From: Lampropedia aestuarii
GTDB taxonomy: Bacteria; Pseudomonadota; Gammaproteobacteria; Burkholderiales; Burkholderiaceae_C
Direction: 5' to 3'
NCBI RefSeq assembly: GCF_004803635.1
Contig: NZ_SSWX01000008.1
Location: 62,001-126,000 of the forward strand
DNA length: 64,000 bases
This document shows positions 57,153 through 64,000 of this stretch, piece after piece (position 1 is the stretch's first letter; each line of letters begins with the position of its first letter). Below the pieces are notes generated by a model, which was not told the origin of the DNA, did not search any database, and was given only the letters and a program-made list of their open reading frames with translations. The position numbers and the translations under genes were made by a program.

Positions 57153-57971
57153 ATGTTGATGTATCCTGAAATCAACCCGATTGCCCTGCAAATCGGGCCA
57201 TTGGCCGTCCACTGGTATGGGCTGACTTACTTGGTTGGCTTCATCCTCTTTGTGATTTTGGGCCGCCAACGGCTCAAGCACCCGCCCTACGACCGCTTAA
57301 CGGCGCAAGGCATTTGGAATAAGCGCGACGTTGAAGACTTGCTGTTCATTGGCGTGATCTGCATTATTGTCGGCGGGCGGCTGGGCTATGTGCTGTTCTA
57401 CAAGCCAGGCTACTACTTTGCCAATCCTTTGGAGATCGTGATGATCAACAAAGGCGGCATGGCCTTTCATGGCGCCTTGATTGGCTCGATTGTTGCGATG
57501 ATCTGGTTTTGCGTCACGCGCAAGCGCCCATTCTGGCAGGTAGCCGATTTTGTCGCACCCTGCGTACCACTGGGCTTTGCGGCTGGGCGCATTGGCAACT
57601 TCATCAACGGCGAGTTGTGGGGCCGTTTTGCCCCGCCGGATTTGCCCTGGGGCATGGTATTTCCGCAAAGCGGCAGCATGCTGGCGCGCCATCCTTCGCA
57701 AATCTACCAGTTCTTGCTCGAAGGGGTTTTGCTGTTCATCCTCGTATGGATGTATGCCCGCAAGGAGCATGCACAGGGCCGTGTAGCTGCCGTTTTCCTG
57801 ATGGGCTATGGCGCATTGCGCTTTATTGCCGAGTTCTTCCGCGAGCCCGACGACTTCCTCGGCCTGCTGTCGCTTGGCATGAGCATGGGCCAGTGGCTGT
57901 GTATTCCGATGATTGCCGCCGGGGCGATTATTTGGGTCTGGGCAGGTAAACGTACGGCTGCGGCGCACTGA
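57153..57971 (+). CDS. lgt: Prolipoprotein diacylglyceryl transferase
   Basis: 272 residues with seven membrane helices. The Lgt signature [13 protein letters not shown] is near residue 146, with the essential His region [11 protein letters not shown] near 105. It attaches diacylglycerol to the lipobox Cys of prolipoproteins, including the three lipoproteins in this window. ATG 57159 (MYPEINP) is an alternative start. It is the last gene before the island-like right end. Confidence 0.97.
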
Positions 57972-58123
57972 ACCAGACGCACCGGCCCATAGTACAAAAA
58001 AGCCCTCAGCGCGCTTCCTTCTGTTCAAGAAAATATATTGAACCATCAAAACCTGGGATCAAACACCTAGGCCACGAAAAACATTGGGCTACGAAACCCC
58101 TGCAGAGATCTTTTTAAAAGGCG
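57972..58123. other. Spacer after lgt
   Basis: No gene. GTTCAA/TTGAAC arms near 58023-58043 give a weak 6-bp dyad. It marks the transition from the core lgt gene to the IS remnant. Confidence 0.5.
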
Positions 58124-58397
58124 TTACCTTGACCGGTTGAATCCAAGGCCGCCTTTTTTAAGATATTCCTCTCTTCGGTGACCCGTTTGAGCTCGGCTTT
58201 TAAACGGCGCAACTCCTCGCTTTGGCCGACCTGCGCGTGCCGCTATGCTGCGGGCACTTGCTGCAGCTTGATCCACTTGTAGAGGCTGTGGGTGCTCACG
58301 CCAATCGACGTGAAACATCGCCCACGCTGTGGCCATGTTCAAGAATTTGCTTGACTGCTTCAATCCTGAATTCTTCGGGGTAACGTTTTGCGTTCAT
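58124..58397 (-). pseudogene. Decayed IS3-family transposase orfA
   Basis: Starting at ATG 58397 the sequence reads MNAKRYPEEFRIEAVKQILE then HGHSVGDVS and, after frameshifts, THSLYKWIK and RRLKAELKRVTEERNILKKA. These are the helix-turn-helix and leucine-zipper parts of IS3-group OrfA. At least two frame disruptions are present, and orfB (the DDE catalytic part) is absent. It is a remnant at the boundary between lgt and the helicase gene. Confidence 0.75.
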
Positions 58398-58486
58398 ATG
58401 GGCTCCTATTAAAACTGAAATAGGAGGCTGAGAACTATCTATAAAACCCTGGTCGATTCAAGGTGCGCCGCACAAGCCACTCGACT

Positions 58487-61400
58487 CTAACTCACCTCTT
58501 CAGCTGTTCGCGCGACAAAGCGCAAAAACAGGTCGGTTGAGAACCTTTGATCAAAATTCTCAACTGAAGAAGCTATGCTTTTTTGAATCAGCTCTTTCAA
58601 CTGCTCGTGCGCCCGATTGCTGAAATCGAAAGAGATTCTTTCAGGGTGCTGCACATCCAATCGCCAGTAGGCAAAGCCTTGATCGAGCCGCAGCGTCAGC
58701 TCGCTTCCGTCACTGAAGGCGAGTTCAAGCTTTCTGTAATGCGGAATATCGCGATTGGTGCTGTGCGTGGTGAAAACGAGTTTGTTTTCTCCAACCAAGG
58801 TATCGAGCCATTGCTGGCAGACCGCTCGGTAATCGTGGGGATCTGCCCAATCGTGGCGAATCGTGGTGCCTTGAAACTTCTCCGCTTTAAACAAGGTTTC
58901 CACTTCCACTGTGGCATCGCTGCTCAATCTTTCGCGCAAGGCGCCGAGCGCCATGCCCAAAATCGCAATCACACTGGGGTTTTGCATATAGCGATCGCTG
59001 TAATGAATGGTCGTGATCTGTCCTTGCGTGAGGGCTGTTTTGATCTGCGGATCCAATGTGGCTATTTTGGCCCAGAGTCTATGACCGAAATCCTCGAGTT
59101 TGCCGTTGAACTCTTGCTTGATGGACAGAGCCGCATTGATATCTGCAGCATTGATCTTTTGCTCAGTTAGCGCAATTTCAGCCACCTTCCACTTCAATGC
59201 GGGCTCAGTCGCGGACTGCACGACCAAACTCCCCTCTTGATGCCAGTACTTTCCTGGTGTGAAGTGCGCGCTCTTGCCTGTGGCCAAGCTGAAAAGGCCT
59301 AGCGGCATCTGCACTTGCACTGTAGCACCACTTACGCTGCCGCCATCAGGGATACCAAAACGAACCCCCAAAGCAGCCAAGTGCCTTAGATCCACCAGTA
59401 ATTCTGGCGATGCCATGGCTGCCTGGGGGATAAGCAAGACGACGTCCACTTTGTCAATAACTACGAGGTGCTCAACGGCCTTCTTAAATTGCGGTGCTAA
59501 CAAGTCCCAGTCACTGAGACTCTCACTGGTTTTCAGAACCACGCTGCTTGCCCCTGCGTGAACTAGACTTCGAAGCGCTGTCTCCAAGCTACCGGGCACA
59601 AACTTGCCATCCACAAATCCCAGCTTTTCGTCTTCACTTAGCCCGACATGGCTGGTGAAGTCATCGCCAAGCCAAGTTTTGGCCAGACTGCGGTTTATAC
59701 GCGGGTGATCCCGGCGCGTGAGGCTGTCATGCAAGCATTCGCTGCAACCTTTGGTGCAATGTTTGCAAGAAAGGATGTCATCTACACGAACCAGTAAACG
59801 CTCGATGTATTGCGGCGCGTTGGTGGCAAACCCAGCTCCGCCACTGATGACATCAAAAATCTGAATCAGCAAATACGCCTGCCCCCCAGCGGCCTTGCTT
59901 GGGCGGATCGCATAAGCCAACTCAGAGCGCGAGATACCTAAAGTCTCTGCCAGTGCGGCGCGCAAGGCGACTGCCAACGTCAGCGCAATACTGCGGCTGT
60001 CCTCGTTTTGGTCGAGTAAATACTCGCCAGTTGAAGGATGACGCAATGCCAACTCAAACACATCTGTTGGCGTGACCACGCCCAAATGAACGCCAGACAC
60101 AAGGCTGCTGCTGCCGGGACAGGTTCTGTCTTTATCGTTTTTCTTTTCCCCTTTGCTGGGCCGCAAAGTGTTGTGCGCCGATTGTGGATTGAGCTCTGGT
60201 GGAAACTCGCCATTGGCATGCATCGACTCAGCACGTCCGCAATGCAAGCACAGTGCATAGCCCTGTCCCCACAGGCCTGATGAATGCTGAAAAATTTGTC
60301 CGTCCGCGCTTGCAGCCATGCTGCCGATCGCCGGGTTGGGAAGCGGAGTTTGAGCCCCGTTCTGGAACACCCATGGTTCCTGAACCGGCATGTAGCTGTG
60401 CTGTTCAATGTTGTTACGTGGCTCCTCATAGGCATCGGTAACGAAGCCAGTGGGCTGCAACACTTTGCGCGTGTTCTTCAGATTAATTTTAGCGCCGCAG
60501 GCTGGGTTCTTGCATGTCAAGGCCGCGGTGCTAAAAGCCCCTTCTGCATAACCCACATGCCCGCAGTGGTGACAGCGCCACGCCACATCCAATCGCTGCG
60601 CCTCTTTGCCATTGCTGTGCAGGTTGTGCCATTGCAGAGAAACGCCGCGAGAGCGGAACACGCGGCCATCGAGCACGATGTCTGCACCGGGCGCATATTC
60701 ACGGATAGCCACGCCCAAATTGCGAGAGGGCAAACCTTTGTAGCGCGCGGCATTGTCTTCACGCTCGTTCTTCAAATTGTCGTTTTTGGCGTTAATGTAA
60801 TCACCGATGCTGAAGTTATCAAACGTCACCACATCGGTGGGAAAGCCATAGCCCGGCAAGAATGCGCGTGCAGCCAAATCGCGCAGCAAGTACTCATTGC
60901 AGTGGCGTTTGAGTTCAAGCTGCAGGCGTTTGCCATAGGAGGAATCCGCTCTTTGCGAAGCCTGCTCAGCGCGTAAATAGGTATAGGTAGCCAACCAGCG
61001 CTCCTGCTGCTGTGCGAGATGGCTCAGTGTCGCTGCGCGCAACGTAGCCGCCGGCACAGCAGACAACGCGGTTGCGACCGTCATGGCCACGATCGAATCG
61101 TCCAGCGGCAGGCTGGGCAGACTCAAGCGATCTCTAAAACGCTGCGCGTGCGATGGCCCAGTGTCTTGGCTGAAGAACCACTCGGTGGTTAAGCTGGTAC
61201 GCGTGGTTTGCGTCTCACCCACCACATTGCACAGATAGTCGGCGAGTACAAAGGCATTGATGTGCCGTTGGATCAAGCGCTCTGAGTTCAGCGCAACAGC
61301 AGGCGCTGGAATCTGCGTGATGAACGGCCAACTGGGGTTGGCAAACACCTGTTGATCGTGCGGGTTGTTCTTGCACAAGGTGTAGGCCAGTGCTCGCGAC

Positions 61401-64000
61401 TCTCGGCTGCGGCCGGCACGGCCGGCACGCTGCAAGTAGTTGGCCGGGTGCGGCGGCACATTATTCATCACCACCGCGGAGATGCCACCGATGTCAACGC
61501 CCATCTCCATCGTTGTAGAACAATTCAAAACATTGATTTTGCCCTTCTCAAAGTCGGCTTCGTAGGCTTTGAGCCGCTCTGAGGACTGCTGCGCAGAGTG
61601 TTCAGCCGTGCGGTAGTAGTAGCCGCCTTCGAGCGTACGGTCGCTCACATCAGTCCACAAATTTTGCTCGCGCAACACTTGGATGCGGGCGTCTTGTGCG
61701 ATCTGGCCGCGAATGTGTTCGACTCCGGGGGTGTAGTCCAACTGCGAGCGATCAAACTCCCACATCCTTGGTAGATCAACCGATGTGGTCTGCCACTGCT
61801 TGATGTCCTGCACATCCAGTGCCTCGAAATCAATGTGCGCAGGCAGATAAGGGCTGAGCCCTTTGAAGCTGGTATCGAGCAGCTTGTTGGTGATAGGGCA
61901 AATGTAGGCACGCTCGATCAGCGAAAAAGTCAATCTTTCGCGGCGCAGCGAAAACAGGTTGCCATCGGCTTTGAGTGGCATGCCCGGCGCGCTTAACTGG
62001 TTCCACGCAGCAGTCAGCCAGAGGTTGATGGTGTCTTGATCGCTGGGCTTTTTGGGGTCGAGCTTGGCGCCCAATGCCAAGAGTTTGATTAAGCGTTGCG
62101 AGTGCACGTTTTTGCGCAGCAGGGGCCAGCGGCGGATGCGGTTCTCATCCTCCTCCACCGAGCTGGGGTTGCGCAAAGTCTTAGGCGCAAACCTCGTGCC
62201 AATCCAGTTGCGCCAATCGTCACTGACCTGCACAAAGCTGTTTTCACGCACAAAGAAGTCGAGTGTGACTTTGAGAAAGTCACGCCAGTCTTGTAGGCTT
62301 AAATTGTGCTTTGTCCAGAGATCTGGCAGGCTGCTGTGCGTATCCACACCGGCGTAGCCCAGCTTGACCATGCCCAGCGTCTCTAAGCTGTTCAAGTACT
62401 TAGGCCGCCGCATGAACTCACGAAATAGCAGCATTTCTGCCACCGCATATATTCCATTGTCTCCCGAGAAAAGCTGCTTATTGAGGTAGGCGTGACTAAG
62501 GTGGATACCACCGCGAATGTCCGTGCGGGTGCACAGCTCTTTGATCATCTCTGGCCACGGCAGCGCCTGCAAAGGCAAATCGCGCGCACCACCTGATTGC
62601 GCCGCTTCTACAAGCGCCTGCACCTCGGCTAAACGGGACTTGGCCTCAGCAAAGCCGGGATCTTGGGGAAAGTCTTTGTAATCGGCGAAATCTTCTTGCG
62701 CACGTTTGAGTTTTTTAGCCAACAGCGCAGGATCTGTGTTGTGTGCCCGCATCCGGATCTCTCCCAAGGCGTCTTGATGCCTGCCTTTGAGGATTTCCAC
62801 CACTAAGCCGCGCAAGATGCTGCGCTCGGCCTCTTGCTGCATGCGCACCGACATGCGCGCTGTGCCCTGGCGGCTATCGGTGAAGGTAATCAGGCGCCGC
62901 CCACGCCCAGGCAGCGAGTTAGGGCCTAAACCGCTGTCGTTGGATTTGGCATCAAAGTCAGGGCAATACTCCAGCACAGTAGGCACGGCGTTGGCCACGT
63001 AAAAAGGCCCGCCGAGCATCGCGCGGCGAAATGCGAACTGCGCCTGCTCTTTGCTGCCAGCCTTACAACGGGGATTGGCGCAAAGTTGCTGCGAGCTGTT
63101 TTGAACCAAGTCGACACCACTTTGGTCTCCAGCGACAAATGCACCGCTGGTTTTGTCAAAGTGCGCAGCCAAATAACCCTTGCTCCCATGCGCCGCGCTG
63201 GCCAAAGTTATCGCATTGGTACTAGGCTGCTGCTGGACTGTGGTTTTCTCTGGTTCATCTAACTCATCTGGATCACCAGCATCATCCAATGCAAACTCAT
63301 CCGCGGCCTCACCAAGCCACTGGGTGAGCTTGCCGTTGACGTCACTGGCCAGCAAATGCGGCTCACCGCACTCTTTGCAAAACGCCAGCTCAAACACTGG
63401 GCTACCACAACTGCATTTTTCACGGTGGGCCACATACACTCGGCCAAAGGGCCAGTCAGGCTCCAAAGTCGTTTTCGCTTTGGCACCGCAGGCTTTGTCA
63501 AAGCAAGCCCACAGGCCATGGGTGGTGCGCTGAAAAATGTGTCCGCGCAGCATCAAAAATGCCGGCTCGCGCGCGGCGGCACGCGTGCCTGTGCACACAT
63601 CCAGCCAACGCAGAATGTGAGCCTGACTCAAACCCTCGCCCGTACGCTCTTGCAAGCGATCCACCAACTCAGTGGCCATCAAAGGCTTGCCAGCAGACAC
63701 CAAAATATCGCGTAACGCCCGTGCAATCGGTGAATGGATCAGGGCGTTAAACCGAGCTGGGTGGATACTGGGGTCTGACTCGGGCGTATCATTTGCCAAC
63801 GCTTCAATGGCATCAAGGCTCTGTTCTTGATTAGCGCTTGGTGGCAAACCGGGCACCACGCGGCTACCGCCGAGCACATCAATTTGTGTAACTGGCACCC
63901 CCGAAATATCTGAGAGAAAGCGTTTGAGCTGGCTCTCACTGTCTTCGCCTGCGATTGTGGCCGACGTGGCGATGAACCGCACATCTTTTGGCGACACGCC
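58487..64000 (-). CDS. Giant SF2 helicase with DUF1998-like C-terminal region, DruE-like (N-terminus beyond right edge)
   Basis: 1837 residues are visible and the frame is open to base 64000, so the N-terminus with Walker A and the DEAD/DEAH box is missing. The first residues contain motif III (FIATSATIAG). Near 195-212 lies a zinc knuckle (CSCGSP and CKECGEP). Motif V (STTMEMGVDIGG) and motif VI (QRAGRAGRSR) are near 825-865. A second zinc site (CHHCG and CKNPACG) is near 1140-1165. A DUF1998-like domain spans about 1325-1435, ending CKHCTKGCSECLHDS. About 400 unassigned residues follow. Total length above 2000 fits DruE of Druantia better than DrmA, DpdJ or MrfA-like helicases. It would be the last gene of its operon. 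Confidence 0.72.
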   Translation of the reverse strand, partial: GVSPKDVRFIATSATIAGEDSESQLKRFLSDISGVPVTQIDVLGGSRVVPGLPPSANQEQSLDAIEALANDTPESDPSIHPARFNALIHSPIARALRDILVSAGKPLMATELVDRLQERTGEGLSQAHILRWLDVCTGTRAAAREPAFLMLRGHIFQRTTHGLWACFDKACGAKAKTTLEPDWPFGRVYVAHREKCSCGSPVFELAFCKECGEPHLLASDVNGKLTQWLGEAADEFALDDAGDPDELDEPEKTTVQQQPSTNAITLASAAHGSKGYLAAHFDKTSGAFVAGDQSGVDLVQNSSQQLCANPRCKAGSKEQAQFAFRRAMLGGPFYVANAVPTVLEYCPDFDAKSNDSGLGPNSLPGRGRRLITFTDSRQGTARMSVRMQQEAERSILRGLVVEILKGRHQDALGEIRMRAHNTDPALLAKKLKRAQEDFADYKDFPQDPGFAEAKSRLAEVQALVEAAQSGGARDLPLQALPWPEMIKELCTRTDIRGGIHLSHAYLNKQLFSGDNGIYAVAEMLLFREFMRRPKYLNSLETLGMVKLGYAGVDTHSSLPDLWTKHNLSLQDWRDFLKVTLDFFVRENSFVQVSDDWRNWIGTRFAPKTLRNPSSVEEDENRIRRWPLLRKNVHSQRLIKLLALGAKLDPKKPSDQDTINLWLTAAWNQLSAPGMPLKADGNLFSLRRERLTFSLIERAYICPITNKLLDTSFKGLSPYLPAHIDFEALDVQDIKQWQTTSVDLPRMWEFDRSQLDYTPGVEHIRGQIAQDARIQVLREQNLWTDVSDRTLEGGYYYRTAEHSAQQSSERLKAYEADFEKGKINVLNCSTTMEMGVDIGGISAVVMNNVPPHPANYLQRAGRAGRSRESRALAYTLCKNNPHDQQVFANPSWPFITQIPAPAVALNSERLIQRHINAFVLADYLCNVVGETQTTRTSLTTEWFFSQDTGPSHAQRFRDRLSLPSLPLDDSIVAMTVATALSAVPAATLRAATLSHLAQQQERWLATYTYLRAEQASQRADSSYGKRLQLELKRHCNEYLLRDLAARAFLPGYGFPTDVVTFDNFSIGDYINAKNDNLKNEREDNAARYKGLPSRNLGVAIREYAPGADIVLDGRVFRSRGVSLQWHNLHSNGKEAQRLDVAWRCHHCGHVGYAEGAFSTAALTCKNPACGAKINLKNTRKVLQPTGFVTDAYEEPRNNIEQHSYMPVQEPWVFQNGAQTPLPNPAIGSMAASADGQIFQHSSGLWGQGYALCLHCGRAESMHANGEFPPELNPQSAHNTLRPSKGEKKNDKDRTCPGSSSLVSGVHLGVVTPTDVFELALRHPSTGEYLLDQNEDSRSIALTLAVALRAALAETLGISRSELAYAIRPSKAAGGQAYLLIQIFDVISGGAGFATNAPQYIERLLVRVDDILSCKHCTKGCSECLHDSLTRRDHPRINRSLAKTWLGDDFTSHVGLSEDEKLGFVDGKFVPGSLETALRSLVHAGASSVVLKTSESLSDWDLLAPQFKKAVEHLVVIDKVDVVLLIPQAAMASPELLVDLRHLAALGVRFGIPDGGSVSGATVQVQMPLGLFSLATGKSAHFTPGKYWHQEGSLVVQSATEPALKWKVAEIALTEQKINAADINAALSIKQEFNGKLEDFGHRLWAKIATLDPQIKTALTQGQITTIHYSDRYMQNPSVIAILGMALGALRERLSSDATVEVETLFKAEKFQGTTIRHDWADPHDYRAVCQQWLDTLVGENKLVFTTHSTNRDIPHYRKLELAFSDGSELTLRLDQGFAYWRLDVQHPERISFDFSNRAHEQLKELIQKSIASSVENFDQRFSTDLFLRFVARTAEEVS

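What the first reader, a model, noticed from the sequence alone, without database searches (positions are those of the whole stretch)
58487..64000. DruE-like giant helicase at the right edge points to a Druantia-type defence island
The sequence shows an SF2 helicase fragment of 1837 residues with motifs III, V and VI, three Cys clusters and a DUF1998-like region followed by about 400 unassigned residues. Established knowledge: Druantia anti-phage systems are defined by DruE, a DUF1998 helicase of about 2000 residues, usually the last gene after type-specific genes (druABCD, druMFG or druH). It lies next to a dead IS3 element beside the core gene lgt. The identity and subtype are inference, since the partner genes lie outside the window and could be known or new.
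Basis: partly seen in the sequence, partly recalled or inferred. Interest (0 to 1): 0.75.

Follow-up and report, generated by a model that had tools for sequence, protein, structure and literature searches.

The report
Two-gene Druantia type III phage defence
The giant helicase at the window's edge, together with the gene just beyond it, is an ordinary example of a known two-gene bacterial system against viruses called Druantia type III.

Summary
The 1837-residue fragment is part of a complete 2123-aa DruE. Extending the contig shows one partner directly upstream: DruH, 1114 aa, overlapping druE by 4 bp. PADLOC's type III models match best, over nearly full length (DruE3 2410 bits, DruH3 1171 bits). 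NCBIfam's DruH family NF038336 gives 803 bits, cut-off 150. So this is Druantia type III, with no unknown partner.

The "400 unassigned residues" model as two PLD-like domains, as published for type III DruE. The pair and IS debris fill about 12.1 kb between lgt and a thioesterase gene; these are neighbours in 3 of 9 other genomes of the genus, and DruH matched in 0 of those 9: probably an acquired cassette.

A mechanism is published (PMC13192584): DruH as likely sensor and nuclease, DruE as 3'-ssDNA-loading helicase-nuclease. Modest addition: across 23 DruE proteins, 12 of 30 residues named there (helicase and ssDNA path) are invariant and 17, mostly PLD-pocket and assembly residues, vary, whereas a YxDRY ... 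HxR ... DxG motif is invariant. New member of a known kind; low interest.

The parts
58487..64000 (-). druE, C-terminal 1837 of 2123 codons. The gene continues 858 bases past the window edge, to C74:126858. Its partner druH (1114 aa, same strand, overlapping druE's start by 4 bp) lies wholly outside the window at C74:126855-130199 (L009:7856-11200)
   Evidence: PADLOC DruE3 2410 bits over residues 3-2112 and DruH3 1171 bits; NF038336 803 bits for DruH, cut-off 150
61406..61618 (-). Helicase_C / RecA2 core with motifs V-VI (DruE residues 1081-1151)
   Evidence: Pfam PF00271, 47.5 bits
59732..59974 (-). MrfA-type Zn-binding domain (DruE residues 1629-1709), includes the Cys group 1698/1701/1705/1708
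   Evidence: Pfam PF09369, 42.1 bits; Cys invariant in 23 of 23
59165..59623 (-). first PLD-like domain (about DruE 1746-1898); the upstream PLD domain is described as inactive (PLDi) in the E. coli preprint
58508..59146 (-). second PLD-like domain (about DruE 1905-2117); the downstream PLD domain is described as active (PLDa) in the E. coli preprint
58976..59002 (-). invariant motif Y1953-x-D1955-R1956-Y1957-x3-P1961
   Evidence: identical in 23 of 23 DruE proteins
58664..58741 (-). invariant motif H2040-x-R2042 ... G2051 ... D2059-x-G2061 ... W2065; candidate PLD catalytic residues
   Evidence: identical in 23 of 23 DruE proteins; the catalytic role is inference
58117..58397 (-). broken IS3-type orfA remnant downstream of druE
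   Evidence: frames with stops; HTH_Tnp_1 34.2 bits and NF033516 18.5 bits, the latter below its cut-off of 160
58400..58460 (+). 61-bp stretch with ten further full or partial copies in the genome, at least four of them at contig ends: probably an IS end (inference)
57153..57971 (+). lgt, the core gene flanking the insertion
   Evidence: TIGR00544, 268 bits

Best explanation
A complete Druantia type III anti-phage system: druH then druE, overlapping by 4 bp, inserted between lgt and a thioesterase gene. Most likely mechanism, transferred from the E. coli system: DruH (YjiT family) senses a late phage structural protein and, as a dimer, nicks or exposes DNA. DruE, a dimeric SF2 helicase of the YprA family, loads on exposed 3' single strands, unwinds, and assembles along the ssDNA; its C-terminal PLD module then cuts phage replication intermediates. 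Shown here: gene content and order, intact helicase and ssDNA-path residues, a tandem PLD-like model of the C-terminus, and conservation of most of the key DruH N-terminal patch. Inferred from the literature: sensing, unwinding, cutting and protection.
For: Family: DruE3 and DruH3 are the best models over nearly full length, with NF038336. Solved homologues: 9tu7 (1009 bits, residues 6-2092; deposited as 'DEAD/DEAH box helicase', 2108 aa) and 9tud, named DruH (72.7 bits, residues 6-249 only). Order: DruH directly followed by DruE on the same strand in 28 of 29 loci, the own one included, and DruE beside DruH in 5 of 5 further order-level loci with a near-full-length DruH. Function residues: 12 of the 30 preprint residues followed are invariant in 23 of 23 DruE, among them own K129, R174, D262, E263, R1147, R1379. 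DruH: 10 of the 14 residues of the preprint's loss-of-function patch are identical to E. coli. Mechanism read in PMC13192584. Acquisition: lgt and the thioesterase are neighbours in 3 of 9 other genomes of the genus; DruH matched in 0 of those 9.
Against: No activity was tested. The other type III study, in M. smegmatis (PMC13316683; abstract and passages seen), reports a required DruH-DruE interaction, a block of phage DNA circularisation and abortive infection, while the E. coli preprint saw no stable DruH-DruE complex, so the mechanism is not settled. E. coli residues of the PLD nucleotide pocket vary: R1258 (R in 6 of 23; A in own), N1987 (5 of 23; K in own), Y1995 (2 of 23; R in own), Q1990 (9 of 23; Q in own but F). 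Of nine CTD assembly residues (H1415, K1546, H1572, H1574, E1913, E1961, E1965, E1968, R2075) own keeps three (E1913, E1968, R2075). None of 5 DruH ATP-site residues and 1 of 5 gain-of-function residues are identical to E. coli (at 19% overall identity, so the alignment is uncertain). No ZorE match was found in the own genome (no positive control). IS debris on both sides could mean decay, though both genes are open.
Confidence: 0.88

Rival explanations
1. The helicase belongs to another YprA-type system (DISARM DrmA, Dpd DpdJ) or is a housekeeping MrfA/Lhr-like repair helicase.
For: Shares the SF2 core and MrfA Zn-binding domain; weak PADLOC hits to DpdJ (96.9 bits) and DrmA (38.7 bits); TIGR03817 118 bits against a cut-off of 874.
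Against: DruE3 scores 2410 bits over residues 3-2112; none of the 19 NCBIfam models listed for DruE reaches its cut-off; the neighbour is DruH.
Confidence: 0.01
2. A decaying, no longer working Druantia III remnant pinned between dead IS elements.
For: IS3-type remnant about 90 bp from the druE stop, and broken IS5-type transposase remnants in opposite orientations upstream of druH; the one promoter-like site upstream of druH is no more than chance (1 found, 0.8 expected).
Against: Both genes are full length without internal stops and keep the 4-bp overlap, and the family's invariant DruE residues are present.
Confidence: 0.07
3. Druantia III in which DruE acts mainly as an ssDNA-engaging helicase and the C-terminal PLD pair is structural or an assembly platform, with cutting done by DruH or another host nuclease.
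For: The PLD pocket residues named in the preprint vary; the M. smegmatis DruE is 1667 aa and described with helicase and DUF1998 domains only; the preprint reports dimeric DruH nuclease activity. The C-terminal part evolves fastest (median pairwise identity 24% against 45% for residues 1-1715, 22 loci).
Against: Eleven positions of the second PLD-like domain are identical in 23 of 23 proteins (YxDRY...P and HxR...G...DxG...W), which looks like a kept active site (inference); the preprint reports DruE nuclease activity in vitro and loss of defence with R1258A, placed in the PLD pocket.
Confidence: 0.12

Closest known systems
Druantia type III of E. coli (DruH-DruE; preprint PMC13192584; compared here through the E. 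coli plasmid locus L026)
   Same: Gene content and order; alignment over the whole DruE; helicase and ssDNA-path residues; Zn-binding module; tandem C-terminal PLD-like domains; DruH N-terminal patch (10 of 14 residues identical)
   Different: 36% (DruE) and 19% (DruH) identity in the alignment (34% and 17% in that); most PLD nucleotide-pocket residues, 6 of 9 CTD assembly residues and 5 of 5 DruH ATP-site residues differ; ZorA-ZorB-ZorE lie beside the plasmid copy, but no ZorE match was found in the own genome (no positive control)
Druantia III of Pseudomonas otitidis, P. schmalbachii, P. delhiensis, P. luteola, Aeromonas sanarellii and Larsenimonas suaedae (L041, L030, L048, L031, L046, L032)
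   Same: Closest relatives found: DruE 54-55%, DruH 41-43% identity; same two-gene order
   Different: Other hosts; insertion sites were not compared
Druantia III of Mycolicibacterium smegmatis (PMC13316683)
   Same: Two genes, DruH and DruE, with a short overlap (17 bp in that paper)
   Different: DruE 1667 aa in that paper against 2123 aa here; sequences not compared here
Druantia types I, II and IV (PADLOC's DruE1, DruE2, DruE4)
   Same: DruE-type helicase core and Zn module (530, 402 and 369 bits)
   Different: The partner here is DruH; the best type III model scores more than four times higher

Membership tests
Druantia type III | DruE-type YprA-family helicase of about 2000 aa matching the type III model best | tested here: met
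   DruE3 2410 bits, residues 3-2112 of 2123; DruE1 530, DruE2 402, DruE4 369
Druantia type III | DruH (YjiT / STY4851 family) encoded next to DruE | tested here: met
   DruH3 1171 bits; NF038336 803 bits, cut-off 150; 4-bp overlap
Druantia type III | Gene order DruH then DruE | tested here: met
   Here and in 27 of 28 other loci
Druantia type III | Intact SF2 helicase residues (K121, R165, D251, E252, R1135 in E. coli numbers) | tested here: met
   K129, R174, D262, E263, R1147 in own; each invariant in 23 of 23
Druantia type III | MrfA-like Zn-binding module | tested here: met
   PF09369 42.1 bits, cut-off 24.2; Cys invariant in 23 of 23
Druantia type III | Two C-terminal PLD-like domains | tested here: met
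Druantia type III | E. coli PLD nucleotide pocket and CTD assembly residues (R1258, N1987, Q1990, Y1995, R2075, H1415, K1546, H1572, H1574) | tested here: inconclusive
   Own keeps R2075 (both alignments) and Q1990 (one of two); the rest differ. Each is kept in 2 to 9 of 23 family members, so I take them as clade properties rather than defining features; loop alignment is uncertain
Druantia type III | Protection against phage | not testable with these tools
   needs a bench test
DISARM (DrmA) or Dpd (DpdJ) | Best match to DrmA or DpdJ models | tested here: not met
   DpdJ 96.9 bits (NCBIfam DpdJ 90.7 against a cut-off of 800), DrmA 38.7 bits
Housekeeping MrfA / Lhr helicase | NCBIfam equivalog over its cut-off | tested here: not met
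   PRK09751 45.9 of 1496; TIGR04121 76.6 of 850; TIGR03817 118 of 874; that these stand for Lhr-type helicases is recalled
Druantia III - Zorya II pair | ZorE in the same genome | tested here: inconclusive
   no match to E. coli ZorE in the own genome, without a positive control

The most novel reading that the evidence does not exclude
In Druantia III outside the E. coli clade, nuclease activation does not use the nucleotide pocket and most CTD-CTD contacts seen in the E. coli cryo-EM trimer. The true catalytic centre of the family is the invariant YxDRY / HxR / DxG motif of the second PLD-like domain, an HxK-type PLD site with Arg in place of Lys. (Odds lowered from 0.3 to 0.25 on recheck, because own keeps 3 of the 9 CTD assembly residues and, in one alignment, Q1990.)
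Probability: 0.25. Interest if true: 0.35.

Novelty: new member of a known kind. Interest (0 to 1): 0.15.

Why it matters
The family comparison is the useful by-product: it separates residues kept in all 23 DruE examined (helicase, ssDNA path, a C-terminal motif) from residues emphasised in the E. coli structure that most of the others lack, which can direct loss-of-function mutagenesis in the model system.

Tried and rejected
DISARM, Dpd, MrfA and Lhr identities were rejected by score. Unknown partner genes: upstream of druH I found broken IS5-type transposase pieces (DUF4096 61.8 bits, DDE_Tnp_1_2 44.2 bits; NF033580 79.6 bits, below its cut-off of 110), then the thioesterase (4HBT) and an SPFH-domain gene. 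Wider defence island: of ten right-flank ORFs scanned with PADLOC, eight had no hit, one SPFH-domain protein gave 23.5 bits to mad1 over its C-terminal HTH stretch, and one 873-aa ORF hit six models (PDC-M37B 128 and 108 bits, DolB 104, TRIP13 37, mad8 31, IetA 27); its AAA-then-protease order looks like a Lon-type protease to me (inference, not tested). Other right-flank ORFs and the left flank were not given to PADLOC. A promoter for druH: nothing above chance. Exact insertion junctions: the spacers of relatives differ too much to fix the target site; the repeat search looked within each flank, not between them. A tree of DruE and DruH was not built; only pairwise identities were compared (22 loci, 231 pairs, r = 0.99, DruE more conserved than DruH in 230 of 231). 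L051 was dropped from that count because its DruH ORF was under 1000 aa. The 23 DruE rows include near-duplicates (Escherichia L026/L047; P. luteola L027/L031); the six other loci were left out of it because DruE was truncated or split (L013, L014, L029, L035, L040) or not found (L044). The preprint residue K97 is Q in the E. coli protein I used (39 of 40 listed DruE residues and 26 of 26 DruH residues matched). DruH structure prediction was not run: a solved DruH exists, and the protein lies outside the window. The family search in genomes came with a control over 14 named genomes, none of which rang. Papers listed but not opened: PMC12904381, PMC11090510, PMC10542128.

Full report
WHAT IS THERE. 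The frame at 58487-64000 (-) is open at the window edge and 1837 residues long. The window is G000:C74:62001-126000 of a 75-contig, 4.17-Mb genome. Reading on in the contig (L009; window position = L009 position + 56999) completes it to 2123 aa (L009:1488-7859). Directly upstream, overlapping by 4 bp on the same strand, is an 1114-aa gene (L009:7856-11200). Upstream of that are broken IS5-type transposase pieces in opposite orientations, then a thioesterase (4HBT), an SPFH-domain gene and others.

IDENTITY. PADLOC gives DruE3 at 2410 bits over residues 3-2112 and DruH3 at 1171 bits over 4-1105; DruE1, DruE2, DruE4, DpdJ and DrmA score 530, 402, 369, 97 and 39 (25 of 37 families shown for DruE). 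NCBIfam NF038336 (YjiT family) gives 803 bits against a cut-off of 150 for the partner, while none of the 19 NCBIfam models listed for DruE reaches its cut-off. Pfam finds DEAD, Helicase_C, ResIII and the MrfA Zn-binding domain in DruE and nothing in DruH. Solved homologues exist: 9tu7 (1009 bits, residues 6-2092; deposited as 'DEAD/DEAH box helicase', very likely a type III DruE) and 9tud, named DruH (72.7 bits, residues 6-249). The preprint lists other entry codes, so these may be a separate deposit (inference). This is Druantia type III, complete with its single partner.

CONTEXT. In three of the nine other genomes of the genus (L016, L017, L018) lgt and the thioesterase gene are neighbours, no more than about 70 bp apart. 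In the other six the thioesterase was not found within the 1.5 kb held beyond lgt. DruH matched in 1 of 10 genomes of the genus, the own one (two of the nine others are only 77-80% complete), in 3 of 299 of the family sample, the own included, and in 9 of 399 of the order sample, the own included, 8 of them over the cut-off. Apart from the own genome, the order sample gives five with a near-full-length DruH, each with DruE beside it, and three with partial matches only, without a DruE hit in the short stretches held. So the roughly 12.1 kb between lgt and the thioesterase is most simply a rare acquired insert with IS remnants at both sides. The remnant beside druE is IS3-type by weak evidence (HTH_Tnp_1 34.2 bits; IS3 model 18.5 bits, below cut-off); a 61-bp stretch next to it recurs in full or part at ten further places, at least four of them at contig ends.

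RELATIVES. A scan of genome contigs with a DruH alignment found 22 loci. With four plasmid-collection records, two genome-search loci and the own locus, 29 loci were examined; 28 have DruH followed by DruE on the same strand (DruE is only partly held in L013, L014, L035 and L040). The exception (L044) has a DruH N-terminal match and no DruE hit. In L029 an IS1380-like element lies between two DruE pieces. Nearest relatives are from Pseudomonas, Aeromonas and Larsenimonas (DruE 54-55%, DruH 41-43%). DruE is more conserved than DruH in 230 of 231 pairs and the two sets of identities correlate at r = 0.99, in line with the preprint's statements that DruH diverges faster and that the pair travels together (PMC13192584).

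RESIDUES. Preprint numbering was transferred through an E. coli protein that carries 39 of 40 listed DruE residues and 26 of 26 DruH residues. Of the 30 DruE residues followed through 23 proteins, 12 are invariant (K121, R165, D251, E252, R1135, R1372, N156, R207, N221, Y227, R231, R647 in E. coli numbers) and R652 is kept in 21 of 23. The other 17 vary: R1139 (12 of 23), Q1990 (9), R1258 (6), N1987 and E1961 (5 each), R2075, E1968 and R914 (4 each), E1913 and E1965 (3 each), and H1415, K1546, H1572, H1574, Y1995, E1343 and N596 (2 each). Of these 17, own keeps R2075, E1913 and E1968 in both alignments and Q1990 in one of two. The 23 rows include two near-duplicate pairs, and the C-terminal part is only 24% identical at the median, so single columns there are uncertain. 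By contrast YxDRY...P (1953-1961 in own) and HxR...G...DxG...W (2040-2065) are identical in 23 of 23. I propose, as inference, that these form the nuclease centre, with Arg where classical PLD sites have Lys (classical motif recalled). In DruH 10 of 14 residues of the loss-of-function patch, 1 of 5 of the gain-of-function residues, 1 of 3 of the synergy residues and 0 of 5 ATP-site residues (K1067 counted in both of the last two) are identical to E. coli; the alignment is weak at 19% identity.

MECHANISM. From PMC13192584 (abstract, sections 5, 9-14 and the discussion read): DruH is the likely sensor with dimer-dependent nuclease activity; DruE loads on 3' ssDNA, forms dimers and higher assemblies, and cuts long DNA. 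PMC13316683 (abstract and passages) reports instead a required DruH-DruE interaction, a block of phage DNA circularisation, activation by a minor tail protein and abortive infection. I adopt the first as the better-resolved model and mark the difference as open. PMC12458937 (start of abstract and passages only) places DruE in the YprA family.

VERDICT. The finding is correct and ordinary: a new member of a known, recently characterised kind. Whether the C-terminal motif has been described elsewhere I cannot say; my three searches listed six papers in all, of which I opened three in part, without supplements.

Noticed in passing
58400-58460: 61-bp stretch with ten further full or partial copies in the genome, at least four of them at contig ends, as expected of a multicopy IS end that breaks the assembly.
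   Followed up: partly
L009:11565-13010 (outside the window): Broken IS5-type transposase remnants in inverted orientation (169-nt arms, 78% complementary) between druH and the thioesterase gene.
   Followed up: partly
L029:13298-21079: In Marinobacter nauticus pMAQU02 an IS1380-like element lies between two DruE pieces.
   Followed up: no
L044:10001-10726: Marinobacter changyiensis shows only a DruH N-terminal match and no DruE hit: a possible remnant or a shorter relative.
   Followed up: no
L028: A 4.9-Mb record filed as an E. coli plasmid is probably a chromosome by its size; it holds a complete DruH-DruE closer to the own one than the E. coli plasmid system is (51% against 34% DruE identity to own).
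   Followed up: no
58490-59761 (DruE C-terminal region): The C-terminal part evolves much faster than the rest of DruE (median pairwise identity 24% against 45%, 22 loci) yet keeps eleven invariant positions in its second PLD-like domain.
   Followed up: yes
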